A stretch of 39,139 bases of DNA from Streptomyces sp. LS1784 (GTDB lineage: Bacteria; Actinomycetota; Actinomycetes; Streptomycetales; Streptomycetaceae): NCBI RefSeq assembly GCF_020103755.1, contig NZ_JAHSQD010000017.1, forward strand, positions 1-39,139, read 5' to 3'. A program made the position numbers and the translations under genes. Under the pieces are notes generated by a model that saw only the letters and a list, made by a program, of their open reading frames with translations, ran no database searches and had not been told where the DNA came from. This document shows, one piece after another, positions 12,046-32,528 of this stretch. Numbering within the stretch: the stretch's first letter is position 1; the number at the start of each line of letters is the position of its first letter.

Positions 12046-13129
12046 GGGTGGTGGCGACCTCGCGCAGGCGCTCGGCGGCGGTCTCCGGTGCCACGTCGTT
12101 GACGAAGGCGTCCATGCCGGATTCGACGCCGGCCAGGTACTTGAGCTTGTCGGCGGTGCGGCGGACGGTGAACAGCTCCAGGTGCAGGGCCAGTTCGTGT
12201 CCGCTCGCGGCGGGTGCCTGGTGCCAGGCGGAGATGTACGGGGTCGGGCCACCTCCGAAGAGCCGGTCGAAGCGGCGCAGCAGTTCCAGGTACAGGGTGG
12301 GGAACTCGGCGCGTTCGGCCTCGTCGAGGTGGGTCAGGTCGGCTACCCGGCGGTGCGGGTAGAGGTGGACCTCGTAGGGCCAGCGGGCGGCGAAGGGGAC
12401 GAAGGCCGTCCAGTGTTCGCCGGCCAGGACGACCCGCGCGCCGTCGGCGCGTTCGGCGGCGAGCAGGTCCTCGAAGAGGTTGCCGCCGGTGCGGGCGCGG
12501 TGATCGGCCGCCGCGGTGATCATGCGCTCGGTGCGAGGGGTGACGAAGGGGAGGGCGTAGATCTGGCCGTGCGGGTGGGCGAGGGTGACGCCGATCTCGG
12601 CGCCGCGGTTCTCGAAGCAGTAGACCTGCTGGATGCCGGGGCGCGTGGCGAGGTCCGCGGTGCGGTCGGTCCAGGCGTCCAGGACGAGGCGGGCCTGCGC
12701 CGGGGTGAGATCGGCGAAGCTCGCTGTGTGGTCGGAGGTGAAGCAGACCACCTCGCATCGTCCGGCGGCGGGTGCGCTGGTGCGGAGCGGGGCGTCGGAG
12801 CGGCCGACGTGGGCGGCGGCGTCGAAGGCCAGCGAGGGGAAGCGGTTCTCGAAGACCGCCACTTCGTAGGCGTCGGCGGGGATTTCGGTCGCCCATCCGT
12901 CGCGGGACGGGCAGAGCGGGCACTGGTCGGCCGGTGGGTGGTAGGTGCGGCCCTGGCGGTGGGCGGCGATGGTGACCCAGTCGCCGGTGGCCGGGTCGCG
13001 GCGGATCTCGGACAGTGCGGTGGTGGGTTCGAGCGGGCGCGGGTCCGTCGTGTCTCGGAGCGCGGTGTCGTCCGCGTCGAAGTAGAGGATCTCGCGGCCG
13101 TCGGCGAGCTTGGTGGCGGTCTTCTTCAT
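12038..13129 (-). CDS. galT: Galactose-1-phosphate uridylyltransferase
   Basis: The product is 363 residues from ATG 13129 (MKKTATKLADGREILYFD, the usual actinobacterial start; an in-frame ATG four codons earlier is possible). Zinc ligands are in CPLC (70-73) and the catalytic HPH is in LAHPHGQIY near 185-187, where the second histidine is the uridylylated nucleophile. It exchanges UMP between UDP-glucose and galactose-1-phosphate. It lies 26 bp after the fucosidase gene and overlaps galK. Together they give two of the three Leloir steps. Confidence 0.95.
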   Translation of the reverse strand: MKKTATKLADGREILYFDADDTALRDTTDPRPLEPTTALSEIRRDPATGDWVTIAAHRQGRTYHPPADQCPLCPSRDGWATEIPADAYEVAVFENRFPSLAFDAAAHVGRSDAPLRTSAPAAGRCEVVCFTSDHTASFADLTPAQARLVLDAWTDRTADLATRPGIQQVYCFENRGAEIGVTLAHPHGQIYALPFVTPRTERMITAAADHRARTGGNLFEDLLAAERADGARVVLAGEHWTAFVPFAARWPYEVHLYPHRRVADLTHLDEAERAEFPTLYLELLRRFDRLFGGGPTPYISAWHQAPAASGHELALHLELFTVRRTADKLKYLAGVESGMDAFVNDVAPETAAERLREVATTHG

Positions 13130-13155: not shown

Positions 13156-14529
13156 CTACGCGGGGTGCGCGGCGCTCGGTGCGTCGACGAGCTCGATCTT
13201 CACGACGGTGTCGGTCGGGTCCGGCAGCGGGTAGGTGAAATGGCCGATCTCGCCGAACTGGACGAACGGGATGTCGGGGTAGGACTTGATCACCCAGGCG
13301 TCGCACAGCTGGAGTTCGCGGCCGTCGGCGAGCAGCGTGATCCTGCCGATGTCCTTCGGAAGGAGTCCGCCGGTCAGGGCGAGCGGTCCGATCGGCGGGC
13401 GCAGGACGTGGGCGTACAGGGTGTTCCCGTTGCGGGTGTAGTAGCCCCATTCCGGGGTTTCCAGGCCGGCGGGACCCGCGCCGTGGACGGATTCGCCGTT
13501 GGCGGCGAGCCAGGCGCCGATCGCCTGAAGTCGCTCGACGGCCTCGGGTTGGATCCGGCCCCGCGGGTCGGGTCCGACGTTGAGTAGCAGGTTGCCGCCC
13601 TTGGCCACGCACTCCACGAGCTTGGTGATCAGCTGCCCGGGGCTCTTCCACAGGTCGTCGCCGGCGGTGTAGCCCCAGTTGTTGTTGATCGTGATGCAGG
13701 CTTCCCACGGCACGGGGCTGCCGTCCTCGGCGCGGATGCCGTCGACCGGGATCAGCTGCTCGGGGGAGGCGAAGTCGCCGCTGTAGTCGGTGGGCGCGTC
13801 GGTCACGATGGAGCCGGGGCCGCCGCCATCGGCTTCCAGCCGGTTGTCGATGAGCGCGGTCGGCTGCAGCTCTCGGACCATCTCGATCAGTTCCTGCGCG
13901 CCCCACTCCTGCGGGCCCATGCCCTCGTAGGAGAAGTCGAACCAGAGGATGTCCAACTGCCCGTAGCTGGTACACAGCTCCCGGATCTGGCCGTGCATGT
14001 AGGCCCGGTACGACTCCAGGTCGGGCCGGTGGTCGGCGAAGGCGGGGTTCTCGCGCTCGGGGTGGATGAGGTCGCCGTAGTGCGGGTAGTCGGGGCGGTG
14101 CCAGTCGAGGAGCGAGTAATAGAGGCCGACCTTGATGCCGCGGGCGCGGAAGGCGTCGAGGAACTCGCGGACCAGGTCGCGGCCGATGCCGTTGTGCATG
14201 CTGCCGTACTCGGTGAGCGCCGAGTCGAACAGGCAGAACCCGTCGTGGTGCTTGGCGGTCAGCACCGCATACTTCATGCCGGCGGCCTCGGCGAGGGCTG
14301 CCCAGGCGTGCGGGTCGTAGTCCTCGGCACCGAAGCCGTCAACGGCGAACCGGTAGTCCTCGATGCCGATCTGCTCGTGCGAGCGGACCCATTCACCGCG
14401 GGCCGGGACGGCGTAGGGGCCCCAGTGGATGAACATGCCGAAGCGGTCGCGGCGGAACCAGTCCGAGCGCTCGAACCGCGCCGGCACCTCGATCGGCAGG
14501 CCCTTGTGGCCGATGGTCGTCTCACTCAT
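13156..14529 (-). CDS. GH29 alpha-L-fucosidase, cytoplasmic
   Basis: The 457-residue product has the GH29 features: FGMFIHWGPYAVPARGEW (30-47), AKHHDGFCLFDS (92-103) and LDILWFDFSYEG, where D198 is the expected nucleophile. There is no signal peptide or membrane span, so it acts inside the cell on imported oligosaccharides. The C-terminal 110 residues form a beta-sandwich, usual for the family. ATG 14529 overlaps the permease stop by ATGA, tying the enzyme to the importer. GH29 enzymes release alpha-L-fucose with retention; the exact linkage (alpha-1,2, 1,3 or 1,4) is not readable from sequence. Confidence 0.9.
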   Translation of the reverse strand: MSETTIGHKGLPIEVPARFERSDWFRRDRFGMFIHWGPYAVPARGEWVRSHEQIGIEDYRFAVDGFGAEDYDPHAWAALAEAAGMKYAVLTAKHHDGFCLFDSALTEYGSMHNGIGRDLVREFLDAFRARGIKVGLYYSLLDWHRPDYPHYGDLIHPERENPAFADHRPDLESYRAYMHGQIRELCTSYGQLDILWFDFSYEGMGPQEWGAQELIEMVRELQPTALIDNRLEADGGGPGSIVTDAPTDYSGDFASPEQLIPVDGIRAEDGSPVPWEACITINNNWGYTAGDDLWKSPGQLITKLVECVAKGGNLLLNVGPDPRGRIQPEAVERLQAIGAWLAANGESVHGAGPAGLETPEWGYYTRNGNTLYAHVLRPPIGPLALTGGLLPKDIGRITLLADGRELQLCDAWVIKSYPDIPFVQFGEIGHFTYPLPDPTDTVVKIELVDAPSAAHPA

Positions 14530-15371
14530 GCCTTCACCGCTCCCGCGACCATGCCGTTGACGATGTACTTCTGCGCGGTGAGGTACACCGCGACCACCGG
14601 CACCATGGTGAGAACCAGGTCGGCACAGACCAGCCCGTAGTCGAAGCTGTGCGTGGACTGGAAGGTGAAGACGGTCATGGGCAGGGTCCATCGGTCGGCG
14701 TCGGGGATCAGGAAGAGCACGTTCTGGAACTCGTTCCAGGCGTAGGTGAAGACCAGGATCAGCGCGGTCGAGCTGACCGGCCGCAGCAGCGGGAAGATGA
14801 TCGTGAAGAACATCCGCAGCGAACCCGCGCCGTCCAGCATGGCGGCCTCGTCGATCTCCTTCGGCAGCTGCCGAATGAAGCCGACGTAGATCAGGGTGAT
14901 GAACGGGATCTGCACGGCGACATCGGTGAGGATCAGTCCCAGGTAGGAGCCGCCGAGGCCGATCTCCTGGAGCAGCCGGATCGCCGGAATGAAGGCGAAG
15001 GGTGCGATGAGTCCGGTGAGCAGGTAGCTGTAGACGCCTCCCGTCACCCGGCCCGGTCGCCGGGCGATGACGAAGGCGGCCAGCGAACACACCAGGACGG
15101 TGACCGCGGTCACCGCCGCCGAGATCAGCACGCTGTTCCCGAGTGCCTGGAGGGCGTTGCCGGTGCGGATGACGGTCAGGTAGTTGTCGAAGTGCCAGCT
15201 GCTGGGCAGCGAGAAGCTCATGGTCTGGGAGTCCGCGGCGCCCTTGACGCTGGTCAGCAGGACCAGGGCCAGCGGGGCCAGGAACACCAGGGCGATGAGG
15301 ACGGCCGTGGCGTACGTGGCCACGGCGGCCAGGATGCCGCCGGGCCGGCGCCGGTTGCGCTGCCGGGTCAC
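14526..15371 (-). CDS. Carbohydrate ABC transporter permease (MalG type)
   Basis: The product is 281 residues with six predicted membrane spans (first about 13-40, last about 245-268). The EAA loop that docks the ATPase is at 172-185 (EIDEAAMLDGAGSL). It belongs to the CUT1 family for oligosaccharides. ATG start is inside the end of the partner permease (4-bp overlap). No ATPase gene lies in the cluster; Streptomyces CUT1 importers usually share the MsiK ATPase encoded elsewhere. Confidence 0.9.
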   Translation of the reverse strand: MTRQRNRRRPGGILAAVATYATAVLIALVFLAPLALVLLTSVKGAADSQTMSFSLPSSWHFDNYLTVIRTGNALQALGNSVLISAAVTAVTVLVCSLAAFVIARRPGRVTGGVYSYLLTGLIAPFAFIPAIRLLQEIGLGGSYLGLILTDVAVQIPFITLIYVGFIRQLPKEIDEAAMLDGAGSLRMFFTIIFPLLRPVSSTALILVFTYAWNEFQNVLFLIPDADRWTLPMTVFTFQSTHSFDYGLVCADLVLTMVPVVAVYLTAQKYIVNGMVAGAVKA

Positions 15372-16303
15372 GGCGTCGCCTCCATCCTGCGTACGAAGCG
15401 GTTGATGACCAGCGCGATGACGGTGATCAGGACGAACTGGAAGACGTTGACGGCGGCGGCGTAGCCCAGCGAGCCGGTGTTGAGCTGCTTGTAGACGTAG
15501 GAGGTGAGCACCTCGGTCGCGGTGCCGGGGCCGCCGCCGGTGGTGGCGTAGATCAGGTCGAAGCCCTTCATGCCGGTGATGAAGGTGATCAGTGCCGCCA
15601 GGTTGACCGCGTGGCGGATGTACGGGAGCTTGATGTGCCGCACCACCTGCCAGGGCCTGGCACCGTCGAGCTCGGCGCTCTCGATCAGCTCGGTCGGCAC
15701 AGCCTGGAGTGCGGCCAGCACCAGGACCACCGTCCAGCCCACGCCCATCCAGACGTCGACGGCGGTGACGCTGTAGAGCGCGAGGTCGAAACTGCCGAAC
15801 CAGTCGTTGGCGAGCCCGAAGGGCTTCAGCAGGGCGTTGACCGGGCCGTCGGACTTGAGCAGGTAGTTGAAGAGCAGGCCGACCACGATGGTGGAGAACA
15901 TGATCGGCAGGTAGACCACCACGCGCAGGACCTTGCTGCCGCGGAACGCCCGGTTGAGCAGGAAGGCGATCGCGATTCCGAGGACGGTCTTGCCGACCGT
16001 CACGCAGGCCGCGTAGACGAACTGGTTGGCGGTGGCGTTCCAGAGGGCCGTTCCGTCGCCGAACAGCAGGCGATAGTTGGCCAGGCCGACGAAGTTGGTG
16101 TCGGGCACGTAGGTCGAGGCGTCGGTGAGGGACAGGTACATCCCGAAGAACGCCGGCAGCAGGAAGAAGACCGTGAAGACCACGACTGCCGGGACGAGGT
16201 ACGTGTAGGGGTAGACGCGGTCCACGCCCTGGCGGGACCGGCCGGCCGCCTTGGCGGCTCGGCCGGTCTCCGCCTTCTGCCGCCTGGGGGCAGCGATGCT
16301 CAT
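15368..16303 (-). CDS. Carbohydrate ABC transporter permease (MalF type)
   Basis: The product is 311 residues with a basic cytoplasmic N-terminus and six membrane spans beginning at about 33. The EAA loop is at 205-227 (ELIESAELDGARPWQVVRHI). It pairs with the MalG-type permease that overlaps it. ATG 16303 lies 19 bp after the binding-protein stop. CUT1-type permeases import di- and oligosaccharides, which fits uptake of fucosylated galacto-oligosaccharides released outside the cell. Confidence 0.9.
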   Translation of the reverse strand: MSIAAPRRQKAETGRAAKAAGRSRQGVDRVYPYTYLVPAVVVFTVFFLLPAFFGMYLSLTDASTYVPDTNFVGLANYRLLFGDGTALWNATANQFVYAACVTVGKTVLGIAIAFLLNRAFRGSKVLRVVVYLPIMFSTIVVGLLFNYLLKSDGPVNALLKPFGLANDWFGSFDLALYSVTAVDVWMGVGWTVVLVLAALQAVPTELIESAELDGARPWQVVRHIKLPYIRHAVNLAALITFITGMKGFDLIYATTGGGPGTATEVLTSYVYKQLNTGSLGYAAAVNVFQFVLITVIALVINRFVRRMEATP

Positions 16304-16322: not shown

Positions 16323-17600
16323 TCAGAAGCCGGCGGTGCCGGCCTTGGCGCCCGCGCTCTGCCAGGCCTTCTGCACCTGGTCGGCGAACTTCGCGGTGTC
16401 GGTCTGCTTGCCGATCAGCTGCTGGTAGGCGGCGATGATGTCGTCCTGCGGCTGCGGGATCGCCGACTGCTGGTCGAAGGGGACGACGGAGCCGCCCTGG
16501 TCGACGAGCTTCTGCAGGTCGGCGACGCCGTCGGAGGCATTGGCCGCCTTGACGTCGGTGAAGGCGGAGACGCCGGGGTTCGCGTCCATGAACTTCTGGG
16601 CCTGCGGCTGGTCGACCATGAAGTTCAGGAAGTCCTGGGCCTGCGGGGCGACCTTGGAGAACTTGGCGACCTTGAGCAGGTTGGGCTTCTGGAGCCCGAG
16701 CGTGGTCTTGCCGTCCGCCGACGGCAGGAGGAAGAAGCCCAGGTGCGCCGAGGGGTTGACCTTGGCGACGGCGGCGAGCGCCCAGGTGCCGTTGACGATC
16801 GCACCGGCCTTGCCGTTCGCGAGGGCGGCGGTGGCGGAGTCGTAGGTGGCGGTCAGCGCGTCAGGGTTGGTCAGCCCATGGCCGACCCAGTCCGCGAGGG
16901 CCTGGTACTCCGGGGTGAAGCCGGGGATGTCGGCCCACTTGCTCTGGTTGGCGTCGAGCTTGGCGGCGAGCTGCGGGTCGGCGCCCACGAAGTTCGCGTT
17001 GACGGCGCTGCGGTGCTGGAGCAGCGTCCACCCGTCCTTGCCGCTGACGTACAGCGGCGTGGCGCCGGTGGCCTTGACCTTCTCCAGGTCGGCCTCGAAC
17101 TCGGCCAGCGTGGTGGGCGGCGCGGTGACGCCCGCCTTGGTGAACACGTCCTTGTTGTAGATGACGCCGGTGGCGTTCAGGCCGTCGGCGCTCGGGGTGC
17201 CCCAGACCGTGCCGTCGGGGGCGGTGATCGCCTTGCGGACGTCCGGGGTGAGCCGCTCGATCCACGGGCCGGTGGCCGGCTGCATCAGGGCGGCCTTGTC
17301 CTTGACGGTGTCCTGGCCGGCGAAGATGTCCACGCCGCTCTTGGCCGCCAGGCGGGCCTGCACCAGCGAGTCGTAGTTGGCATCCGGCACCGGGGTGAGC
17401 TTGACGGTGTTGCCGGTCTGCTTCTCCCACGCGTGGACGTTGTCCTGGAAGCCCGGCACGTTCGCCCAGGAGGTGGGGAGCATGTAGGTGATGGTGGCGT
17501 GTCCGGAGCCCTCGGACTGGCTGGAGCTGGAGCAGCCGGTGAGGGCTGCGGCCACCATCGCCGTGGTCCCGATCGCGGCGGCGATTCTGATTCTGGGCAT
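16323..17600 (-). CDS. Sugar-binding lipoprotein of the ABC importer
   Basis: The 425-residue product starts with a lipoprotein signal peptide ending in the lipobox LTGC, so Cys23 is lipidated and the protein is anchored outside the membrane. The remainder is a cluster B extracellular solute-binding protein (ITYMLPTSWANVPGFQDN, later GKAGAIVNGTWALAAVAK, the typical MalE-like hinge region). The start ATG 17600 is preceded by GAGAGGAA at proper distance. It follows the ROK gene by 57 bp and leads the permease genes. The ligand is predicted to contain galactose and fucose from its neighbours only. Confidence 0.9.
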   Translation of the reverse strand: MPRIRIAAAIGTTAMVAAALTGCSSSSQSEGSGHATITYMLPTSWANVPGFQDNVHAWEKQTGNTVKLTPVPDANYDSLVQARLAAKSGVDIFAGQDTVKDKAALMQPATGPWIERLTPDVRKAITAPDGTVWGTPSADGLNATGVIYNKDVFTKAGVTAPPTTLAEFEADLEKVKATGATPLYVSGKDGWTLLQHRSAVNANFVGADPQLAAKLDANQSKWADIPGFTPEYQALADWVGHGLTNPDALTATYDSATAALANGKAGAIVNGTWALAAVAKVNPSAHLGFFLLPSADGKTTLGLQKPNLLKVAKFSKVAPQAQDFLNFMVDQPQAQKFMDANPGVSAFTDVKAANASDGVADLQKLVDQGGSVVPFDQQSAIPQPQDDIIAAYQQLIGKQTDTAKFADQVQKAWQSAGAKAGTAGF

Positions 17601-17657: not shown

Positions 17658-18848
17658 CTAGGCGCCGGCGGGCTGGGGCACCCGGCGGCGGCGGTCGGCT
17701 AAGGCCGTGAGCAGCGGGCCGATGTCGATCCGGGCGGGGAAGGCCGGGTCGCCGAGCAGGGTGTCGAAGGTGCTGCTCAGTGCCGTCTGCAGGACGCCGA
17801 GGGAGGGGCCGAAGACCGGGAACTGGGTGACGGCCAGGTCCAGCGGATAGGCGCGCCGGAGCAGGGTCGTCAGTCGCGCGTCGATCCGGTCGGTGAGCGC
17901 GCGCCGGCCGGCCACGGGGCCGCCGAGCACGATCAGCTGCGGGTCGATCGCCAGGGTCAGGTAGGCGATCTGCCGCGCGGCCCGGTCGGCGAAGCGGTCG
18001 AGTTCCGCTTGGCTGTCCTGGTCGCCGCGGTCGGCGGCTTCCAGGACGGGGAGGAAGGATTCCAGTTCGGCCCAGTGTGCGGGGGTTTCCGGGCCGTCGT
18101 CGATCAGGTTCAGCTCGCCGGCCATGTTCCGGCTGCCGCGGTGGATCCGGCCGTCCAGGACGATGCCGGCCGCCACCTGGTGCCAGGCGAGCACCAGGGC
18201 GAAGGTGTCGGCGCCGCGCGCGGCTCCGTACCAGTGCTCGGCGACGGCGGCCGCGTTCAGGTCGTGCTCCACGATCACCGGGACCTCGCCGAACGCCAGC
18301 CCTGCCTCGGCCGGTGAACGGCCCTGCAGGTCGGGGTGGTGCGGCGAGTAGCTGATCCGGCCGTCGGGACCGATGCCGCCGGTCAGCGCGACGCCGAGGC
18401 CGAGCCAGCTGCCGTGGGTGGTGCGCAGCCGGGCTACCAGGCGGCCCAGCCGCTCCCGCAGGCCGACGATCCGCTCGTGGCCTGGCAGCGGCTGCGGTTC
18501 GTGGTGTTCGCCGATGTGCAGGATCCGTCCGCCGATGTCACAGACGATGATCCGCTCGGTGTGCTTGGCGATCTCCGCGCCGATCACGAAGCCGTGCTCG
18601 CTGCGGAAGCGGAAGCGCGAGGCCGGTCGGCCGCCGCTGGGCGTGGGCGACTTCCCGTGCGACGCGCCGGTGGTGACCTCGACCAGTTCGGGGAGCTCCG
18701 CCAGCCGTTCCTTGACCGTAGGCCGGGACAGCCCGGTGGCGGTCGCGAGCTGGGTGAGCGTCGCCTCGCCGAGACCACGCAGCGCGGCCGCACAGGCGGC
18801 CGTCGTCGACCTGGGGGAAGGGTCGCCGTCGAACGCGGACGCGGTCAC
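17658..18848 (-). CDS. ROK-family transcriptional regulator
   Basis: I chose GTG 18848 because GGAGGAG lies just upstream; an ATG four codons earlier (18860) has no space for a binding site. The product is 396 residues: an N-terminal winged HTH (LTQLATATGLSRPTVKERLAEL) and a ROK sugar-kinase-like domain (EHDLNAAAVAEHWYG, GIVLDGRIHRGSRNMAGELN, later LIVLGGP). The usual ROK zinc motif CxCGxxGCxE is missing, so it is not an active glucokinase. It is the first gene of the importer unit and divergent to the GH98 gene, so it probably represses both in the absence of a sugar ligand. Confidence 0.85.
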   Translation of the reverse strand: MTASAFDGDPSPRSTTAACAAALRGLGEATLTQLATATGLSRPTVKERLAELPELVEVTTGASHGKSPTPSGGRPASRFRFRSEHGFVIGAEIAKHTERIIVCDIGGRILHIGEHHEPQPLPGHERIVGLRERLGRLVARLRTTHGSWLGLGVALTGGIGPDGRISYSPHHPDLQGRSPAEAGLAFGEVPVIVEHDLNAAAVAEHWYGAARGADTFALVLAWHQVAAGIVLDGRIHRGSRNMAGELNLIDDGPETPAHWAELESFLPVLEAADRGDQDSQAELDRFADRAARQIAYLTLAIDPQLIVLGGPVAGRRALTDRIDARLTTLLRRAYPLDLAVTQFPVFGPSLGVLQTALSSTFDTLLGDPAFPARIDIGPLLTALADRRRRVPQPAGA

Positions 18849-18894
18849 GGTCTCCTCCATTCTCCAGGGCGTGTGACACGGGTATTGCAGGCCC

Positions 18895-19044
18895 GTTTCG
18901 AATCCGTGTTTCGTAACCGGCTGCGAGGACCGTAGGTCAAGGCCGCAGGTCGCGCAACGATTCCGAAAGGATTCCACACGAGCTTTCGAAACCCCGCACC
19001 ATAACCGGACGTGCCTGCGCAGACGCGTATTGCCATCGGTTATG
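18895..19044. promoter_or_regulatory. Divergent promoter/operator region between ROK and GH98 genes
   Basis: The 312-bp gap 18849-19160 holds no gene but repeated motifs. GTTTCG occurs at 18895 and 18908 (GTTTCGAA and GTTTCGTAA, 13 bp apart) and its inverse CGAAAC at 18987-18992. TAACCGG occurs at 18914-18920 and 19002-19008, and its inverse CGGTTA at 19037-19042, so CATAACC (19000-19006) faces GGTTATG (19038-19044). These are plausible operators for the ROK regulator controlling both directions. Confidence 0.4.
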
Positions 19045-19160: not shown

Positions 19161-21461
19161 GTGGCGAACCCAGACGACGCCCTGTCCGGACCGCACGACG
19201 CCATGACCGACGGCCCCACCCGTCGGCGCTTCCTCAGCACGATCGCGGCCATCGGCGCCGGTGCGGCCACGCCCGCCGTGCTCGGCGCCTTCGGCCTCGG
19301 TGGCACGGCGCAAGCGGCCACCGGCACCCCCATGCGCGCCGTGATCGACGCGACCCACCCGGCTCACCTGATCAACTTCGGCCAGAGCGACGCCCCCTAC
19401 CAGGGGACCCTCGCCCAGCTGTGGGACACCGTCCCGGCCTGGCTCAAGCCGTACGCCTACATCAACCTCATCGGCGACAACCACCTCCGCAACGTTCCGG
19501 CCACGACCGGCTGGATCCAGTCCCAGCTGGATGCGGCCGAGGCCGCCGGCATCCCGGTCCTCGCGCAGGTCGCCAACGGTGAGACCGGCAACACCGAGCT
19601 GATCCCGGTGAGCCAGTGGCAGACCTGGGCCCAGACCCACCCGAAGACCTTCAAGGGGTTCAACGCCGCCGAGCTCTACAACGGCCCGGACCTGAGCAAC
19701 TACCTGATCAGCCTGTTCAACGTGGCCGGTCAGCTGGGCATGTTCTTCTTCTGGACCGACACCAACATCTTCGGCACCGACGGAATGATGTTGGACTACA
19801 TGCAGAACAACTCCGCGTTCCTGCCGACGATGAAGGCGAACGCGGCGAACCTGGTGTTCATGAACAAGGAGTCGTTCGCGACCACCAGCACCGACGCGCT
19901 GATCAAGGGCCTGTGGCTGACCGGCTACATCGGCAACTGGGGTTCCTCGACGGACTGGTGGAAGTGGGGCCTGGACAGCCGGGGCGTCTTCCCGGGCGGC
20001 TCGGGCTACCAGGACTGGAAGTTCATCCTGCAGTACCCGCAGGGCCTCCAGGTGCAGTCGATCGTCCGGGACCTCTCGCAGGGCGCGACCTGTTTCCTGT
20101 CCGAGGCCTCGTACTTCACCAACGGCGCGCTCGGCCACCGCTACGCGGGCGCGCAGTTCGGCGTCTACCCGCTGCTGCGCGGTGTACTCAACGGCTGGAT
20201 CACCATCCCCACCCGCGCCGAGGTCGCCGGCCAGCAGCAGGTGCTGGCCAAGGGCATCGCCAACTTCACCACGCCGGGCTGGATTCAGTCGCTCAACAAC
20301 GCCATGGCCGTCGACGGCCGGTACGGCATGCTCTCGCTGGTCCCCACCACGATGCCCGCCGCCGACCTCGCCGCCTTCACCACCGTGACCACGCCGAAGC
20401 CGGCCGGCTACTACGACGGCCTGTTCCCCGGCTTCGCGAGCGCCGGAAACGGCTGGCTGGTGCGCTCCGACGGCGCGCAGAAGCAGTGGTACTACACCAG
20501 CCCCGCGATGGACGTGCAGCAGAAGTCCGCCGTGGTGTTCTCCCCCACCAACGTCCCCACCGCCTCGGTGACGATCAGCTCGGACGAGCACACCAACGTC
20601 ATCGTCCAGGAGAACCCGTCCAACCTGGGCTTCCACGTCTTCAACTACCGCCTCGACCTGACCAACGCGCTCTCGCTGGTCACCGACCAGGCCACCACCC
20701 TCGCCTTCGGCCAGAACTACATGGCGCCGAAGCTGGACTCCGCCGGCAACCCCGTCGTGAACGCAGACGGCTCGATCACCACCGTCGGCGGCAAGACCCT
20801 CCCGGACCGGAGCGCGCGGGACGTCCGCAACGTCACCATCACCGTCGTCGGCACCTGGAACGGTGGCAAGCCGAACATCGCCTTCGACGAGTACCCGGGC
20901 ATGTCCCGCCCGTACACCCAGAACCAGATCTGGGACCCTACGACCAAGACCCTGGTGCTGACCCTCACCATGAACGGCACCGCCCACTTCAACGTGCAGC
21001 TCAACGGCGGCGGCCCGCACATCCTGCCGCGCACCGGCTGGACCGTGGCGTACGCGGACAGCCAGGAGCTGACGGCGGAGAACGATCCGGCGAGCAACGT
21101 GCTGGACGGCTCCATGGCCACCTTCTGGCACACCCAGTGGACGGGCAGTTCCCCCGCTCCGGCGTGCCCGCACGAGATCCAGCTCGACATGAAGGCCTCG
21201 CACACCGTCTCGGGCTTCAGCTACCTGCCCCGCCAGGACGGCCCGCAGAACGGCTGGGTCGGGAAGTACGAGTTCTACGTCAGCGCCGACGGCGTCACCT
21301 GGGGAAACCCGGTGGCCACTGGTACGTTCGCCAAGGACAGCACTCTGAAGACCGTCAACTTCACTGCTACCAACGGCCGTTACGTCCGCTTCCGGGCACT
21401 GTCCGAGGTCAACGGCAACCCCTGGACCTCGTGTGCCGAGCTGAACGTCATCGGCCTGTGA
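19161..21461 (+). CDS. Tat-exported GH98-like endo-glycosidase with C-terminal CBM32-like domain
   Basis: GTG 19161 has CAGGAG six bases upstream. Of 766 residues, 15-52 form a twin-arginine signal (RRRFLS, hydrophobic core, AQAA). The GH98-like catalytic part covers about 60-360: VPAWLKPYAYINLIG, a WIQSQLDAAEAAGIPVLAQV helix-strand, KTFKGFNAAELYNG, LVFMNKESFATTS, and GLWLTGYIGNWGSSTDWW. E171 fits the catalytic acid, and D265 and E315 are candidates for the base; their spacing resembles known GH98 residues as I remember them. A GH98 C-terminal beta domain follows, then residues 626-766 form an F5/8-type C (CBM32) module. Known GH98 enzymes are inverting endo-beta-galactosidases on blood-group A/B glycans, or xylanases. 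The exact substrate is inferred only. Confidence 0.75.
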   Translation: MANPDDALSGPHDAMTDGPTRRRFLSTIAAIGAGAATPAVLGAFGLGGTAQAATGTPMRAVIDATHPAHLINFGQSDAPYQGTLAQLWDTVPAWLKPYAYINLIGDNHLRNVPATTGWIQSQLDAAEAAGIPVLAQVANGETGNTELIPVSQWQTWAQTHPKTFKGFNAAELYNGPDLSNYLISLFNVAGQLGMFFFWTDTNIFGTDGMMLDYMQNNSAFLPTMKANAANLVFMNKESFATTSTDALIKGLWLTGYIGNWGSSTDWWKWGLDSRGVFPGGSGYQDWKFILQYPQGLQVQSIVRDLSQGATCFLSEASYFTNGALGHRYAGAQFGVYPLLRGVLNGWITIPTRAEVAGQQQVLAKGIANFTTPGWIQSLNNAMAVDGRYGMLSLVPTTMPAADLAAFTTVTTPKPAGYYDGLFPGFASAGNGWLVRSDGAQKQWYYTSPAMDVQQKSAVVFSPTNVPTASVTISSDEHTNVIVQENPSNLGFHVFNYRLDLTNALSLVTDQATTLAFGQNYMAPKLDSAGNPVVNADGSITTVGGKTLPDRSARDVRNVTITVVGTWNGGKPNIAFDEYPGMSRPYTQNQIWDPTTKTLVLTLTMNGTAHFNVQLNGGGPHILPRTGWTVAYADSQELTAENDPASNVLDGSMATFWHTQWTGSSPAPACPHEIQLDMKASHTVSGFSYLPRQDGPQNGWVGKYEFYVSADGVTWGNPVATGTFAKDSTLKTVNFTATNGRYVRFRALSEVNGNPWTSCAELNVIGL

Positions 21462-21486: not shown

Positions 21487-23631
21487 ATGACAGTGCACAA
21501 CCCCGTCCCGGCCGTGCTCCGCGCGGCCGGGACCGCCCTGATCCTGGACGTCTCGGGCCCCGGCCTGCCGGTCGTCCTGCACTGGGGCGCCGACCCCGGC
21601 GACCTCGGCGACACCGACCAGTTGCTGCTCGGCCTCCGGCCCTCCTGGCCGGTGGCCTCCGTGGACGCCCCGGTGCGGCTGCGGCTGGTCCCGCAGCAGG
21701 TCGACGGCTGGGTCGGGCGCCCCGGCATCACCGGGCACCGGGACGGCATGCCGCCCCATCTGCGCCTGACGCTGACCGAGCCGGTCGCGCTGAGCGGCTC
21801 GTCAGGTGAGGGCGGCAGGCTCGTGGCTCGGGCTCGCGACGAGGCCGCGGGCCTGGCAGTGGCGACCGAGGCCGAGATGGACCGGTTCGGCGTGGTCCGG
21901 CTTCGGCACGAGATCACCAACGAGGGCCCGGGTGTCTACGTCCTCGACACGGCCGCCTGCCTGCTCCCGGTGGGCGAACAGGCGGGCGAGGTACTCGACT
22001 TCACCGGCCGCTGGGCCCGCGAACGCGAGCCGCAACGGCGGCCGCTCGCCCACGGGTTGACGGCCCGCGAGTCCCGTCGCGGCCGCACCGGGCACGACGC
22101 GACCGGTCTGTTCCTGGTCGGCGAGCCCGGCTTCGGCTTCCGGCACGGCCAGGTCTGGGCCGCGCACGCCGGCTGGAGCGGCAACCACCTTCACTACGCC
22201 GAACTCCTGCCCGAACACCGCCCGGTGCTCGGCGCGGGCGAACTCCTCACGCCCGGCGAGATCCGCCTTGCGGCCGGCGAGGCCTACCAGACCCCGTGGT
22301 CCTACTTCGCCTGGTCCGGCGAGGGCATGGACGGGCTGTCCGACCGGCTGCACCAGCACCTGCGCGCCCGGCCCACGCACCCACACAGCCCGCGGCCGGT
22401 GATGCTGAACACCTGGGAGGCGGTCTACTTCGACCACCGCCTCGACCGGCTCACCGAGCTGGCCAAGCGCGCCGCCCGGGTCGGCGTGGAACGCTTCGTC
22501 CTCGACGACGGCTGGTTCCTGGGCCGCCGCGACGACAGCGCCGGCCTCGGCGACTGGACCGTCGACCCGGCGGTGTGGCCGGACGGACTCCACCCCCTGG
22601 TGGAGCGGGTCCGGGCGCTCGGCATGGAGTTCGGGCTCTGGGTCGAACCGGAGATGGTCAACCCCGACTCCGACCTCGCCCGCGCCCACCCCGACTGGCT
22701 GCTCGCCGCCCCCGACCGCGCCGCGCCGAACGCCCGCAACCAGCAGGTGCTCGACCTCGCCAACCCGGAGGCGTACGCCCACATCGCCGAGCGCCTGCAC
22801 GCCCTCGTGGACGAGTACGGCATCGGCTACCTCAAGTGGGACCACAACCGCGACCTGCTCGAAGCCGCCCACGCAGGCACGGCGGGCGTCCACGCCCAGA
22901 CCCTGGCCGTCTACCGCCTCCTGGACGAACTGCGCGAGCGCCACCCGGGCCTGGAGATCGAGTCCTGCTCCTCCGGCGGCGCCCGGATCGACTACGGCAT
23001 CCTGGAGCGCACCGACCGGATCTGGGCCTCGGACACCAACGACCCCGTCGAGCGCCAGCGCATCCAGCGCTACACCGGGCTGTTCGTCCCGCCGGAGCTG
23101 ACCGGCAGCCACGTCGGCGCCGCCACCGCGCACACCACCGGACGCACCAGCCCGCTGCCCATCCGGCTGGCGACCGCCCTGTTCGGCCACGCCGGCATCG
23201 AGTGGGACATCACGGCGTGCTCCGAGGAGGAACTCGACCGCCTGACCGACTGGGTCGGTCTGCACAAGCGACTCCGGCCGCTGCTGCACGGCGGGCGGAC
23301 CGTCCGTGCCGACCACCCGGACCCGTCGGCCCTCCTCCACGGCATGGTCTCCGACGACCGACGCCAGGGTGTCTTCGGCCTGTTCCAGCTGGTGTCGTCG
23401 ACCTCGTCGGTGGCCGGCCGGATCCGCATTCCCGGACTCGACCCGGCACTGACCTACACCGTCACGGTCCGCCCGGAGTTCCAGGCCGCCTCGGCCCACC
23501 CCAGCACCGCCGTGCCCTGGATCGCCGCGGGGTCGGTCCGGGTCCCGGGCGCGGTACTGGCCACGGTCGGCCTGGCAGCGCCGCTGCTCGATCCCGAGCA
23601 GTGCCTGGTGCTGGAACTGCTCGCCGAGTAG
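21487..23631 (+). CDS. GH36 alpha-galactosidase, cytoplasmic
   Basis: The 714-residue length is typical of bacterial GH36. The N-terminal beta-supersandwich covers about 1-300, followed by a TIM barrel with VLDDGWF (338-344), YLKWDHNRD (nucleophile D452), ESCSSGGARIDYGIL and WASDTNDP (acid/base D516). It removes terminal alpha-galactose (or possibly alpha-GalNAc) with retention. No signal peptide is present, so it acts after import. It lies 25 bp after the GH98 gene and ends at a strong hairpin. In a blood-group-B-like trisaccharide, terminal alpha-galactose must be removed before most fucosidases can act, which would give this enzyme the first step. Confidence 0.92.
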   Translation: MTVHNPVPAVLRAAGTALILDVSGPGLPVVLHWGADPGDLGDTDQLLLGLRPSWPVASVDAPVRLRLVPQQVDGWVGRPGITGHRDGMPPHLRLTLTEPVALSGSSGEGGRLVARARDEAAGLAVATEAEMDRFGVVRLRHEITNEGPGVYVLDTAACLLPVGEQAGEVLDFTGRWAREREPQRRPLAHGLTARESRRGRTGHDATGLFLVGEPGFGFRHGQVWAAHAGWSGNHLHYAELLPEHRPVLGAGELLTPGEIRLAAGEAYQTPWSYFAWSGEGMDGLSDRLHQHLRARPTHPHSPRPVMLNTWEAVYFDHRLDRLTELAKRAARVGVERFVLDDGWFLGRRDDSAGLGDWTVDPAVWPDGLHPLVERVRALGMEFGLWVEPEMVNPDSDLARAHPDWLLAAPDRAAPNARNQQVLDLANPEAYAHIAERLHALVDEYGIGYLKWDHNRDLLEAAHAGTAGVHAQTLAVYRLLDELRERHPGLEIESCSSGGARIDYGILERTDRIWASDTNDPVERQRIQRYTGLFVPPELTGSHVGAATAHTTGRTSPLPIRLATALFGHAGIEWDITACSEEELDRLTDWVGLHKRLRPLLHGGRTVRADHPDPSALLHGMVSDDRRQGVFGLFQLVSSTSSVAGRIRIPGLDPALTYTVTVRPEFQAASAHPSTAVPWIAAGSVRVPGAVLATVGLAAPLLDPEQCLVLELLAE

Positions 23632-23692: not shown

Positions 23693-24439
23693 TCAGTCGA
23701 GCTCAGAGGCCGCCGCGCCGAGGGTGGCGCGCAGCCACTGCTCGACCTCGCCGATGTGCACCGTCGCCCAGGCCTGGGCGAGGTCGGGCTGTCGGGCTGC
23801 GACGGCTTCGTAGATCGCCCGGTGCTGCTGCCTGGTGCGCTCCACGGAGCCTTCCTCGGTGCGCCCGCGCCAGAGCCTGGCGCGGGCGGTGGGGCCGGAG
23901 ACTCCCCCGATGAGGGAGCAGAGCACGGCATTGCCCGAGCCGGCCGCCAGGCGGCGGTGGAACTCCATGTCGTTCTCGATCAGCGCCTCCAGCGAGGCGT
24001 CGTCGTCGAGTTCGGCCAGCACCGCGCCGAGGGCGGCGATGTCCTCGTCGGACATCACCCGGGCGGCCATCGCGGCCGCGGCGGGCTCCAGGATGCGGCG
24101 GACCTCAAGGAACTGCAGCACTGTGTCGTCCTGCTGGAGGTCGACGGCGAACGACAGTGCGTCGACCAGGAGTTCGGGCTCCAGGCTGGTCACGTACGTG
24201 CCGTCGCCCTGCCGTACGTCGAGCACGCGGATGAGGGAGAGCGCCTTGACCGCCTCGCGCAGGGAGTTGCGGGACAGGCCCAGGCGCTCGGCCAGGTCGG
24301 GCTCGCGTGGGAGTTTCGAGCCCGGGCGGAGCTCACCGCTGACGATCATGGCCTTGATCTTCTCGATCGCCTCGTCGGTGACCGGCACGCGTACTCGCTT
24401 CTCTCGTGATCGTGTTCGGGTCTGTGCAGGATAGGTCAT
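23693..24439 (-). CDS. GntR-family regulator with FCD ligand domain
   Basis: The product is 248 residues from ATG 24439, which overlaps the lactonase stop; GTG about 20 codons later is possible. Residues 20-85 are the winged HTH (GSKLPREPDLAERLGLSRNSLREAVKAL, then VLDVRQGDGTYV; only part quoted). The FCD domain has the metal ligands in ENDMEFHRRL, QQHRAIYEAV and WATVHIGEVE. FCD regulators bind hydroxy-acids such as aldonates. As last gene of the fucose operon it is likely its repressor, sensing L-fuconate or a downstream keto-acid and binding the CATC(C/G)GATG palindromes near 32.5 kb. Confidence 0.9.
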   Translation of the reverse strand: MTYPAQTRTRSREKRVRVPVTDEAIEKIKAMIVSGELRPGSKLPREPDLAERLGLSRNSLREAVKALSLIRVLDVRQGDGTYVTSLEPELLVDALSFAVDLQQDDTVLQFLEVRRILEPAAAAMAARVMSDEDIAALGAVLAELDDDASLEALIENDMEFHRRLAAGSGNAVLCSLIGGVSGPTARARLWRGRTEEGSVERTRQQHRAIYEAVAARQPDLAQAWATVHIGEVEQWLRATLGAAASELD

Positions 24440-25305
24440 ACCCGGGCGGGCGGCCTGAGGCCGTAGACACGGACGGCGTTGTCGTGGAACAGCGTGTCCT
24501 TCTCGGACGGGCTCAGTTGGTCGGTGAGGCGGTCGGCGAGGTCGACGACCTCGCGGTAGCTGGCCTGGAGCGTGCAGACCGGCCAGTCCGAGCCGAAGAG
24601 CAGGCGGTGCGGTCCGAAGGCCTCCAGCGCGGTGTCGGCGTACGGGGCGATGTTCTCCGCCCGCCAGGTGCCGGGGGCGGCCTCGGCGACCATGCCGGAG
24701 AGCTTGCACACGGTGTTGGGCAAGGCGGCCAGGCAGCGCAGGTCGGCCGCCCACTGGTCGATCACGCCGGTGGCGATGGGCGGCTTGCCGAGGTGGTCGA
24801 GGACGAAGGTCAGCCCGGTGAGGCCGGCTGCGGCGGTGACGGAGGCAGGAAGCTGGTGCGGCTTGACCACCAGGTCGTAGACCAATCCCGCCTCGGCGAC
24901 GGCCAGCAGGCCGCGCCGGACGTCCTGGCGCAGCAGCCAGTTCGCGTCGGGCTCCTCCTGGACCTGGTGGCGGATGCCCACCAGCCGTTCCCCACCGGGC
25001 AGTTCACGCAGCGCGGCGATCCGGTCGACGACGTCGCGCGCCGTCAGGTCGGTCCAGCCGACGACCCCGGTCACCAGGTCGCTGCCCGCCGCGAGGGCCA
25101 GCAGCTCCGGGGTCTCCTCGGGAACGCAGACGGTCTGTACGGCGACGGTGCCCACGACGCCGGCCGCGCGGGCCTCGGTTGTGAGGTCGGCGGCGGAGAA
25201 GGAGCGGGCGAGCGGGGCGAGGGCCTCGCCGGTGATCCACGGCTGCGGACGCACGGCGAGGTCCCAGACGTGGTGGTGGGCGTCGATGATCGGCCGGGTG
25301 GTCAC
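24436..25305 (-). CDS. Amidohydrolase-2 family lactonase, probable L-fucono-1,5-lactonase
   Basis: GTG 25305 overlaps the mutarotase stop (GTGA) and gives 289 residues. The metal motif is near the start (IIDAHHHVWDL), followed by LTFVLDHLGKPP and the C-terminal LLFGSDWPVC, which is the characteristic arrangement of COG3618 lactonases. These open sugar 1,5- or 1,4-lactones to aldonates. With a fucose-like dehydrogenase and L-fuconate dehydratase in the same operon, hydrolysis of L-fuconolactone to L-fuconate is the best assignment. Confidence 0.85.
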   Translation of the reverse strand: MTTRPIIDAHHHVWDLAVRPQPWITGEALAPLARSFSAADLTTEARAAGVVGTVAVQTVCVPEETPELLALAAGSDLVTGVVGWTDLTARDVVDRIAALRELPGGERLVGIRHQVQEEPDANWLLRQDVRRGLLAVAEAGLVYDLVVKPHQLPASVTAAAGLTGLTFVLDHLGKPPIATGVIDQWAADLRCLAALPNTVCKLSGMVAEAAPGTWRAENIAPYADTALEAFGPHRLLFGSDWPVCTLQASYREVVDLADRLTDQLSPSEKDTLFHDNAVRVYGLRPPARV

Positions 25306-25613
25306 AGGCGCCACACCACCGGGAGCCCGGCGGCGGCGCCGTCCTCGGAGTAGTCGTGGACGACGTCGAGGAGTTCGGCCATCCGTGCCTGCCAGGCGAT
25401 GTTCACCGGGAGGTGTTCGAGTTCGGCGAGCAGCCGGGCGTAGTCCTCGCACTCCAGGAGGTGGAACAGCTCGCAGCCGCTGCGCCAGATCGTCCAGGAG
25501 GAGACACCCGCTGCGCGGATGGCGGCCGTCAGCTCGTCCGGCACGGCACGGTGGGCGGCCTCGTACTCCTCGATCCGGTCCTCGCGGACGCGGGTGTGCA
25601 GGGCGATCCTCAT
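25302..25613 (-). CDS. L-rhamnose/L-fucose mutarotase family protein (RhaM-like)
   Basis: The 103-residue product has the RhaM/DUF718 fold signature: MRIALHTRVREDRIEEYEAA, the central SGCELFHLLE strand and NIAWQARMAELLD. It interconverts alpha and beta anomers of a 6-deoxy-L-sugar, and in this operon L-fucose is the natural substrate. ATG 25613 overlaps the lutC stop by ATGA and its own stop overlaps the lactonase GTG. The first 20 or so residues include the expected catalytic-site histidine (H6). Confidence 0.85.
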   Translation of the reverse strand: MRIALHTRVREDRIEEYEAAHRAVPDELTAAIRAAGVSSWTIWRSGCELFHLLECEDYARLLAELEHLPVNIAWQARMAELLDVVHDYSEDGAAAGLPVVWRL

Positions 25614-26275
25614 GGGTGCTGCTCCGGGTGGGTGGGGTCGGCAGAGGCGTCGACGATGACGACGTCGAGGGTGCGGGGGCCGTGGACGCCTTCGACCCGG
25701 TTGAGTTCGATGTCGCTGGTGGCGGACGGGCCGGAGATGAAGGTGAGCGGCCGGGTGGGGTCGAGGCGGGTGAGGGCGTCGGGGACGTCGTCGGCGATCT
25801 GCTCGGCGCGGACGATGCACAGGTGGTAGTCGGGGACGAGGGTGAGGGCGCGGCGGCCCTGGCCGGGGCCGGCGTCGAGGACGATGGTCCCGGTGACGGC
25901 GATGCCGGCGGCGGCGAGGGTGATCACCCCGTCCAGCGCGTCGAGTTGGGGGACGTCCAGCGGTTCGGGGTGCCACTCCCAGTCGCCGGGCGGCAGCAGC
26001 TCGACGGGAAAGCCGCCGGGCAGGGCCAGCTGCCGTACGCCCCGCGCGGTGAGGGCGGCGGCAATGGCAGCGGGCAGTCCGGCCCGGTCGGTGCGGGTGA
26101 CGGTGGCCCGGTAGTCGGCGACCCGTTCGGCGAACAGGGCGACGCAGTCGCCGCCCGGTTCGACGTGGCTGCGGCGGTAGTTCCTCGGAACGGGTACGTC
26201 CTCGGGGGTTTCACCGCGCGGGACGTCGGTGAGGGCGGCGCGGATGCGGCCGAGGATGGCCTCGCGGCTGCTCAT
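25610..26275 (-). CDS. lutC: L-lactate utilization protein LutC
   Basis: The 221-residue product is an LUD-domain protein (SSREAILGRIRAAL at the start; later DALDGVITLAAAGIAVTG and ALTLVPDYHLCIVRAEQI), the standard LutC/YkgG form. It is the third subunit of the LutABC complex that oxidises L-lactate to pyruvate. ATG 26275 overlaps the lutB stop by ATGA. Its presence in a fucose operon fits L-lactate as an end product. Confidence 0.9.
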   Translation of the reverse strand: MSSREAILGRIRAALTDVPRGETPEDVPVPRNYRRSHVEPGGDCVALFAERVADYRATVTRTDRAGLPAAIAAALTARGVRQLALPGGFPVELLPPGDWEWHPEPLDVPQLDALDGVITLAAAGIAVTGTIVLDAGPGQGRRALTLVPDYHLCIVRAEQIADDVPDALTRLDPTRPLTFISGPSATSDIELNRVEGVHGPRTLDVVIVDASADPTHPEQHP

Positions 26276-27735
26276 CGCTCCTTCTCCTCCTTGTTCTCGC
26301 GCCACCAGCTGCGGAAGGACTGGGCGGGCGGCGCGGGGGTGTCGCGGGTGTCGGACCAGCCGTGCAGCGGTCCGGGCAGCCGTCCGATCCGCCCCTTCCG
26401 GGCGAGGGCCCGGCCGCCCAGCGCGGCCGCCTTCTGGGCGGCGGCGAGCAGCCGCGGGGAGTCGAGGACGGTGGCAGCCGCCTTCATCGCCGCCGCCTCG
26501 GCGGTGGGCAGGCGCTTGGCGGATCGCTTCGCCTCGACGGCCTCGGCCCGCAGGTGGGCGAGGACCTCCGGGATGTTGATCTTCACGGGGCAGGCGTCGT
26601 AACAGGCCCCGCAGAGGGTGGAGGCGAACGGCAGGCTCGCGGCGTTCTCCACGCCCACCAGCTGCGGGGTCAGCACCGCGCCGATCGGCCCGGGATAGAC
26701 CGAGCCGTACGCGTGGCCGCCGGTGCGCTCGAAGACCGGGCAGACGTTGAGGCAGGCCGAGCAGCGGATGCAGGCGAGGGCCTGGCGGCCGACGGTGTCG
26801 GCGAGGGTGTCGGTGCGGCCGTTGTCGAGCAGGACGAGGTGGAACGTCTGCGGCCCGTCGCCCTCCGTCGTCCCCGCCCAGGTGGAGGTGTACGGATTCA
26901 TCCGCTCGCCGGTGGAGGAGCGCGGCAGCAGCTGCAGGAACACCTCCAGGTCCGTCCAGGTGGGGACGACCTTCTCGATGCCCATCACGGTGATCAGGGT
27001 CTCGGGCAGGGTGAGGCACATCCGGCCGTTGCCCTCGGATTCGACCACGACGACCGTACCGGTGTCCGCAACCGCGAAGTTGGCGCCGGAGACGGCGACC
27101 TTGGCGGTGAGGAACTTCTCCCGCAGGTGGCGGCGTGCCGCCTCGGCGAGTTCCGCCGGCTCGTCACTCAGGCCCTCGGGGGCGGGCTGGCCCCACTCCC
27201 CCATCCGGGCGGCGAAGATGTCGCGGATCTCGGTGCGGTTCCGGTGGATCGCGGGGACGAGGATGTGGGAGGGCCGGTCGTCGCCCAACTGGACGATCAG
27301 CTCGGCGAGATCGGTCTCGTAGGCGGTGATCCCGGCCTCGGCGAGGTGCTCGTTGAGGCCGATCTCCTGGGTCGCCATGGACTTGACCTTCACCACCTCC
27401 CGCTCCCCGGTGGCCCGGACCAGCTCGGTGACGATCCGGTTCGCCTCGGCCGCGTCCGAGGCCCAGTGGACGGTGCCGCCCGCCGCCGTGACGGACTGCT
27501 CCAACTGCACCAGGTAGCGGTCGAGATGGCGCGCGGTGCGCTTCTTGATCGCCGCGCCCGCTGCGCGCAGCGCCTCCCAGTCGTCCAGCTCCGAGGCGAC
27601 GGCGAGGCGCTTGTCGCGGATGGTGCCGGTGGCCCGCTTCAGGTTGGCGCGCAGCTGGGTGTCCTTCAACGCCTCGCGGGCGGCCTCGGGGAAGGACGGG
27701 GAGCCAAGCCAGACGACGCCTCTGTTCTCGTTCAT
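26272..27735 (-). CDS. lutB: L-lactate utilization iron-sulfur protein LutB
   Basis: The 487-residue product has an N-terminal LUD domain (VVKVKSMATQEIGLNEHL, then FLTAKVAVSGANFAVADTGT) and a C-terminal ferredoxin part with two 4Fe-4S motifs, CIRCSACLNVCPVF and CGACYDACPVKI. This is the LutB/YkgF architecture. It transfers electrons during L-lactate oxidation. ATG 27735 overlaps the lutA stop. The frame is intact. Confidence 0.93.
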   Translation of the reverse strand: MNENRGVVWLGSPSFPEAAREALKDTQLRANLKRATGTIRDKRLAVASELDDWEALRAAGAAIKKRTARHLDRYLVQLEQSVTAAGGTVHWASDAAEANRIVTELVRATGEREVVKVKSMATQEIGLNEHLAEAGITAYETDLAELIVQLGDDRPSHILVPAIHRNRTEIRDIFAARMGEWGQPAPEGLSDEPAELAEAARRHLREKFLTAKVAVSGANFAVADTGTVVVVESEGNGRMCLTLPETLITVMGIEKVVPTWTDLEVFLQLLPRSSTGERMNPYTSTWAGTTEGDGPQTFHLVLLDNGRTDTLADTVGRQALACIRCSACLNVCPVFERTGGHAYGSVYPGPIGAVLTPQLVGVENAASLPFASTLCGACYDACPVKINIPEVLAHLRAEAVEAKRSAKRLPTAEAAAMKAAATVLDSPRLLAAAQKAAALGGRALARKGRIGRLPGPLHGWSDTRDTPAPPAQSFRSWWRENKEEKER

Positions 27736-32426: not shown

Positions 32427-32473
32427 GTCCACCTCCGGTCGATGAGCGCCGACTCGGCCATCAACGAGAACAG

Positions 32474-32486
32474 ACATCGGATGACT
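32474..32486. promoter_or_regulatory. Operator-like palindrome, copy 1 (CATCGGATG core)
   Basis: ACATCGGATGACT contains the near-perfect palindrome CATC-G-GATG. It lies 14-26 bases downstream of the predicted -10 box of the fucose operon, a position where a bound repressor blocks transcription. A 13-bp exact inverted copy is at 32627-32639. Confidence 0.6.
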
Positions 32487-32499
32487 CGGCGCGCCCATG

Positions 32500-32528
32500 A
32501 CCATACGGCCCGGCATCTACAAGCACAA
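32500..32528 (-). promoter_or_regulatory. Candidate promoter of the fucose operon
   Basis: On the minus strand TTGTGC (32528-32523) and TATGGT (32505-32500) are 17 bases apart, good matches to sigma-70-like boxes in actinobacteria. Transcription would start near 32494 and pass the palindrome at 32474-32486 before the FAH start at 32426. Confidence 0.5.

What the first reader, a model, noticed from the sequence alone, without database searches (positions are those of the whole stretch)
19161..21461. GH98-like enzyme with conserved acid/base positions but a divergent sequence
The GH98 core pattern is present (E171 in FNAAELY, D265 in STDWW, E315 in LSEASY), yet the protein is distant from the pathogen enzymes I remember and carries a Tat rather than Sec signal. 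A soil actinobacterium would meet plant or fungal polymers more than host glycans, so a new GH98 specificity is likely.
Basis: partly seen in the sequence, partly recalled or inferred. Interest (0 to 1): 0.75.

Follow-up and report, generated by a model that had tools for sequence, protein, structure and literature searches.

The report
Streptomyces blood-group-B-like sugar harvesting locus
A soil-type actinobacterium encodes a secreted scissor enzyme from an uncharacterised branch of the blood-group-cutting GH98 family, next to an importer, internal trimming enzymes and galactose/fucose breakdown genes, so it probably feeds on blood-group-B-like sugar caps rather than on a new plant or fungal polymer.

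Summary
Window 19161-21461(+) is an intact secreted GH98 enzyme with a galactose-binding-type CBM32 tail. The acids E171, D265 and E315 align with the GH98 catalytic acids in all 19 proteins aligned, and the predicted fold matches GH98 far above any other family (Z 37 versus 13). Its clade (100/100 support) lies apart from every characterised GH98 placed in the tree, so "divergent" holds. The plant/fungal-polymer reading is not supported. The gene heads a module also found in another actinobacterial family: GH98, GH36 alpha-galactosidase, ROK regulator, sugar ABC transporter and GH29 alpha-fucosidase. Two gut Lachnospiraceae loci pair clade members with the same GH29 type and a non-homologous GH4-family enzyme. 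The window also holds galK/galT and a complete L-fucose oxidation route. I infer that GH98 releases an alpha-Gal/alpha-Fuc-capped galactose, like the blood-group-B trisaccharide, which is imported and split into galactose and fucose. It works like the described GH98 loci, with a different fucose pathway and an unassayed clade. What lies beyond the scissile bond, and so whether the linkage specificity is new, remains open.

The parts
19161..21461 (+). Secreted GH98 enzyme: leader (residues 1 to about 52), GH98 catalytic barrel (about 53-365), GH98 C-terminal beta domain (about 366-618), CBM32 (622-766)
19161..19316 (+). Tat-type leader (TRRRFLSTIAAIG...AQA)
   Evidence: sequence; twin arginine conserved in L005/L006
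19671..19673 (+). E171, predicted general acid
   Evidence: aligned with the residue that is E in 2wmf/2wmh and A in 2wmg, and E411 of RgGH98 (PMC8730463)
19953..19955 (+). D265, conserved catalytic acid of the STDWW motif
   Evidence: invariant
20103..20105 (+). E315, predicted general base
   Evidence: invariant
21024..21458 (+). CBM32 (F5/8C), nearest to the galactose oxidase and M. viridifaciens sialidase galactose-binding modules
21487..23631 (+). GH36 alpha-galactosidase, no leader apparent, directly downstream of GH98
   Evidence: Pfam 401 bits; nearest solved relatives are AgaB-type alpha-galactosidases
17658..18977 (-). ROK-family regulator, divergent from GH98
16323..17600 (-). Lipoprotein sugar-binding protein of the ABC importer
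15368..16303 (-). ABC sugar permease
14526..15371 (-). ABC sugar permease
13156..14529 (-). GH29 alpha-L-fucosidase, no leader apparent
   Evidence: nearest solved relative 6gn6, E 1e-161
12038..13050 (-). galT (start approximate)
10873..12041 (-). galK (start approximate)
23693..24445 (-). GntR/FCD regulator of the fucose genes (role inferred from position)
24436..25308 (-). L-fucono-lactonase-like amidohydrolase (start approximate)
   Evidence: NCBIfam FuconLaconase E 3e-70, 237 bits, below its equivalog cut-off of 400
25302..25619 (-). sugar mutarotase, RhaM family (start approximate)
25610..28472 (-). lutC, lutB, lutA: L-lactate oxidation
28473..29420 (-). aldo/keto reductase, candidate L-fucose dehydrogenase (start approximate)
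29465..30230 (-). SDR, candidate 2-keto-3-deoxy-L-fuconate dehydrogenase (start approximate)
30223..31563 (-). enolase-superfamily sugar-acid dehydratase, candidate L-fuconate dehydratase
31575..32516 (-). FAH-family hydrolase giving pyruvate and L-lactate (inferred); true start probably about 90 nt inside
   Evidence: NCBIfam DhyDRhmHlse 317 bits, below cut-off 500

Best explanation
The gene encodes an exported GH98 endo-beta-galactosidase. [quoted passage not shown] Its CBM32 holds it on galactose-rich glycans. The released di- or trisaccharide enters through the adjacent ABC transporter. In the cytoplasm GH36 removes alpha-galactose and GH29 removes alpha-fucose, leaving galactose. Galactose goes through GalK/GalT and fucose is oxidised to pyruvate and lactate, with LutABC taking the lactate. 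Shown here: family, domains, catalytic-residue conservation, the conserved module and the catabolic genes. Inferred: the exact sugar cut, the import of that sugar, the linkages and the natural source.
For: GH98 fold and catalytic acids. The same module GH98-GH36-ROK-SBP-permease-permease-GH29 recurs in two genomes of another actinomycete family, with GH98 only 38-40% identical. Two Streptomyces orthologues (74-75%) are syntenic. The same importer, GH29 and GH36 (76-83%) also stand beside a very different GH98 (27%) in NRRL F-6131. GH29 orthologues of 75% identity or more occur only in the two GH98-bearing genomes out of 395 Streptomycetaceae; all others listed are 52% or less. Two Lachnospiraceae loci with this GH98 clade carry an ABC importer, the same GH29 type (47-52%) and a GH4-family enzyme where GH36 would be. 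Galactose and fucose catabolism lies in the window; the fucose genes are on the same contig as GH98 in F-5727 and S. wedmorensis. The tryptophan loop said to block the alpha-1,3 branch in the Lewis-Y enzyme (Trp512, PMC8730463) aligns to Leu here.
Against: No substrate was tested. The lysine of A/B-type enzymes that contacts the terminal alpha-sugar (Lys788 of RgGH98) is not conserved at the aligned position, though that loop aligns poorly. The GH29 sub-group that includes the nearest solved relative showed no significant activity on natural fucosides, only traces on A/B type II sugars (PMC11189522). GH36 could serve another alpha-galactoside. Where a soil bacterium meets B-like caps is unknown.
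Confidence: 0.66

Rival explanations
1. The enzyme recognises H-type or xyloglucan-like Fuc-alpha-1,2-Gal ends and releases the disaccharide; GH36 serves other galactosides. The plant source would be fucosylated xyloglucan or pectin side chains.
For: [quoted passage not shown] Secreted GH95 enzymes, a family containing alpha-1,2-fucosidases, lie near the locus in F-5727 and S. wedmorensis. Sp4GH98, the best structural match, acts on Fuc-alpha-1,2-Gal of Lewis Y (PMC8730463).
Against: An alpha-galactosidase-type enzyme is fixed in the module in three lineages, once from a non-homologous family. No xyloglucanase or xylosidase was found in the cluster. The blocking Trp512 loop of the Lewis-Y enzyme is absent.
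Confidence: 0.2
2. It is a plant-polymer GH98 like the Bacteroides ovatus endo-xylanase that cuts highly branched corn xylan.
For: GH98 includes one such xylanase (PMC4491172); it appears among the structural matches, Z 31.5. A soil habitat fits.
Against: The pneumococcal galactosidases match better (Z 34-37). No arabinofuranosidase, xylosidase or glucuronidase was found in any of the clade's loci examined, whereas fucose and galactose genes are.
Confidence: 0.06
3. The enzyme cuts a B-like cap in a bacterial or fungal surface polysaccharide in soil rather than animal glycans, so the acceptor side differs from GlcNAc. This is a variant of the best explanation and overlaps with it.
For: Occurrence in Streptomyces and a second actinobacterial family. 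The clade is deeply separate from the animal-glycan enzymes. Some bacterial O-antigens carry B-like caps (general knowledge).
Against: Two gut Lachnospiraceae carry clade members in tandem with a GH98 that groups with the A/B-type enzymes, which suggests mucin-type glycans there.
Confidence: 0.3

Closest known systems
Sp4GH98 (2wmf/g/h), Streptococcus pneumoniae TIGR4, Lewis Y enzyme
   Same: Best sequence (E 1e-21) and structure match (Z 37.4, 506 residues, 2.4 A); catalytic acids align
   Different: About 22% identity; other clade; the Trp512 loop that narrows the pocket is absent here; different accessory binding module
Sp3GH98 (2wmi, 4d6x) A/B-trisaccharide-releasing enzyme
   Same: Same fold and acids (Z 34); proposed product is of the same type
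   Different: 18-19% identity; other clade; Lys927 (PMC8730463) not conserved at the aligned column here
RgGH98 (7pmo/7q20), blood-group-A-specific, and its operon
   Same: GH98; gene cluster includes a fucosidase (GH95) (PMC8730463)
   Different: 16-17% identity; gut anaerobe; cluster with GH73, GH95 and GH31 instead of GH36 and GH29
Pneumococcal fucose locus of the A/B type (recalled from general knowledge; source paper not held)
   Same: Secreted GH98, ABC importer, cytoplasmic GH36 and GH29
   Different: To my knowledge pneumococcus uses FucI/FucK/FucA steps; here an oxidative L-fucose route plus LutABC, and ROK and GntR regulators
Bacteroides ovatus GH98 endo-xylanase (9h6f/g/h; PMC4491172)
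   Same: GH98 fold
   Different: 16% identity; xylan side-chain enzymes around it; other substrate

Membership tests
GH98 | Catalytic-domain profile above the curated cut-off | tested here: met
   PF08306 46.5 bits, cut-off 23
GH98 | C-terminal GH98 domain | tested here: inconclusive
   PF08307 22.8 bits, cut-off 25, but the fold matches GH98 structures through model residue 563 and beyond and clade relative L025 passes at 55.5 bits
GH98 | Conserved catalytic acids E/D/E | tested here: met
   E171, D265, E315 invariant
GH98 | GH98 fold | tested here: met
   Z 37.4, 506 residues; next family 13.4; model mean pLDDT 71
GH98 | Three acids converge in one pocket | not testable with these tools
GH98 | Endo-beta-galactosidase (or endo-xylanase) activity | not testable with these tools
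   needs an assay
Blood-group A/B-type GH98 subgroup | Groups in a tree with Sp3GH98/RgGH98 | tested here: not met
   separate 7-member clade, 100/100
Blood-group A/B-type GH98 subgroup | Lys788/Lys927 contacting the terminal alpha-sugar | tested here: inconclusive
   aligned residue is Gln, but the loop aligns poorly
Lewis-Y-type GH98 subgroup | Trp512 blocking loop | tested here: not met
   Leu at the aligned position
GH98 oligosaccharide-import locus | ABC importer plus cytoplasmic alpha-fucosidase and alpha-galactosidase next to GH98 | tested here: met
   cytoplasmic location inferred from the lack of a leader
B. ovatus-type GH98 xylanase | Xylan accessory enzymes in the locus | tested here: not met
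   none among the window ORFs scanned or in the related loci examined

The most novel reading that the evidence does not exclude
This clade is a GH98 type with a linkage specificity not yet described, for example cutting B-like caps from type 1 or type 3 chains or from a microbial polysaccharide, and it complements the A/B-type GH98 beside which it sits in gut Lachnospiraceae.
Probability: 0.4. Interest if true: 0.65.

Novelty: new variant of a known kind. Interest (0 to 1): 0.5.

Why it matters
The characterised GH98 galactosidases come from human-associated bacteria and define how microbes harvest blood-group caps. A conserved, self-contained locus in free-living-type actinobacteria, headed by a clade with no assayed member that I know of, says that B-like caps are a food source outside the host or that the glycan exists in soil. 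It offers a ready test set (GH98, binding protein, GH29, GH36) for linkage specificity, and enzymes with other core-chain preference would be of use for blood-group antigen removal. The GH29 sub-group had no good natural substrate in published assays; the GH98 product is a concrete candidate.

Tried and rejected
Plant-xylan reading: rejected as unlikely because no xylan accessory genes were found and the pneumococcal galactosidases match better. Plasmid collection search found only CBM32 matches among the rows listed, no GH98 relative. A search for a conserved operator between the ROK regulator and GH98 gave no shared palindrome. The original paper on Sp3GH98/Sp4GH98 is not held, so the Sp4 acid numbers rest on memory plus the visible E to A mutant chain. 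Reading A/B specificity from Lys788 was dropped because that loop aligns poorly. Viral contigs and phages were not searched, as nothing suggested a phage link.

Full report
What is there. Window 19161-21461(+) encodes a 766-residue protein from a GTG start. The same GTG start with a purine-rich ribosome-binding site is found in the two closest orthologues. The protein has a Tat-type leader (TRRRFL), a GH98 catalytic domain (46.5 bits, cut-off 23), a weak GH98 C-terminal match (22.8 bits, cut-off 25) and a C-terminal CBM32 (96 bits). The CBM32 is nearest to those of galactose oxidase and of the Micromonospora sialidase. It is the only GH98 found in the 9.6-Mb genome.

Is the catalytic site real? 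Sequence search against solved structures finds Sp4GH98 at E 1e-21 over residues 80-609, then RgGH98 and Sp3GH98. The first is the residue that is Glu in 2wmf/2wmh but Ala in the 2wmg mutant chain, and Glu411 in RgGH98 (PMC8730463). The AlphaFold model (mean pLDDT 71) aligns with Sp4GH98 at Z 37.4, rmsd 2.4 over 506 residues, with Sp3GH98 at 34-35, the B. ovatus GH98 xylanase at 31.5 and RgGH98 at 31. The best non-GH98 family scores 13.4. Foldseek agrees. I could not measure the three acids in the model because coordinates are not exposed.

Where it sits in the family. GH98 is rare in its relatives: 2 of 395 genomes of its family, 3 of 395 of its class (both counts include this genome). A maximum-likelihood tree puts the window with two Streptomyces, two genomes of another actinomycete family and two gut Lachnospiraceae in one clade with 100/100 support. 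That clade is apart from the Lewis-Y-type, A/B-type and RgGH98 enzymes. The B. ovatus xylanase was not in the tree.

The neighbourhood. Next to GH98 are a GH36 alpha-galactosidase, a divergent ROK regulator, a lipoprotein sugar-binding protein, two ABC permeases and a GH29 alpha-fucosidase. Both exo-enzymes lack an apparent leader, so trimming should be cytoplasmic. Further out are galK and galT and, on the other side, a GntR regulator, a lactonase close to L-fucono-1,5-lactonase, a mutarotase, lutCBA, an aldo/keto reductase, an SDR, an enolase-superfamily dehydratase and an FAH-family hydrolase. Together these match the oxidative L-fucose route ending in pyruvate and L-lactate. Individual assignments are by family, and the lactonase and hydrolase fall below the NCBIfam equivalog cut-offs.

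Conservation of the module. The two Streptomyces orthologues (74-75% GH98 identity) are syntenic, and their fucose genes are on the same contig. Two genomes of another actinomycete family have GH98-GH36-ROK-SBP-permease-permease-GH29 with 36-60% identities. In NRRL F-6131 a GH98 only 27% identical stands beside orthologous GH36, GH29 and importer genes (76-83%), with a transposase gene between. A GH29 of 75% identity or more occurs only in the GH98-bearing genomes of 395 Streptomycetaceae. In two Lachnospiraceae the clade member is in tandem with a GH98 that groups with the A/B-type enzymes, and the cluster has an ABC importer, the same GH29 type and a GH4-family enzyme in place of GH36. GH4 holds alpha-galactosidases and other activities, so its role there is inferred. 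Recurrence of alpha-fucosidase plus alpha-galactosidase-type functions from different families is the main argument for a product carrying both sugars.

Mechanism. I propose that the exported GH98 cuts behind a galactose bearing alpha-fucose and alpha-galactose, as in the blood-group-B cap. The released sugar is imported, GH36 and GH29 trim it, and galactose and fucose feed the two adjacent pathways. No hexosamine genes were found in the Streptomyces cluster, which fits B rather than A. The gut clusters carry a BadF-type kinase gene, compatible with A-type sugars there, but this is inference. The Trp512 loop of the Lewis-Y enzyme, said to block the alpha-1,3 branch (PMC8730463), is Leu here. 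The A/B lysine is not conserved at the aligned column, but that loop aligns poorly.

Membership, coordinates, acids and divergence are right. The leap from habitat to plant or fungal polymers is not supported by the gene content. A new specificity on the leaving-group side remains possible, because the clade has no assayed member that I know of.

Verdict. A new variant of a known kind: GH98-led oligosaccharide import, in a new clade and coupled to an oxidative fucose pathway. Substrate and linkage are inferred, not shown.

Noticed in passing
L026:5823-6422 (Streptomyces sp. NRRL F-6131): A GH36 remnant beside the GntR/fucose genes matches only residues 9-99 and 593-714 of the window GH36, while an intact GH36 lies in another contig next to a divergent GH98; it looks like loss and re-acquisition of the module.
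   Followed up: partly
L007:12986-14416: A DDE transposase gene lies between the divergent GH98 and the orthologous GH36/GH29/importer genes, suggesting exchange of the GH98 by mobile DNA.
   Followed up: partly
L041 and L042: Two gut Lachnospiraceae carry a clade-member GH98 directly beside a GH98 of the A/B-type group; genome G1291 holds five GH98 genes of several types.
   Followed up: partly
L005:249-3620 and L024:13142-15991: GH95 enzymes with CBM32 or ricin-type lectin domains lie near the fucose genes in the two Streptomyces relatives; the window's own genome has one GH95 on another contig (C399).
   Followed up: partly
window 3751-4584 (+): 277-residue ORF with coding-type GC3 and no Pfam match.
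   Followed up: no
window 7719-9011 (+): Aldonolactone oxidase-type flavoenzyme upstream of the sugar locus; relation to it unknown.
   Followed up: no
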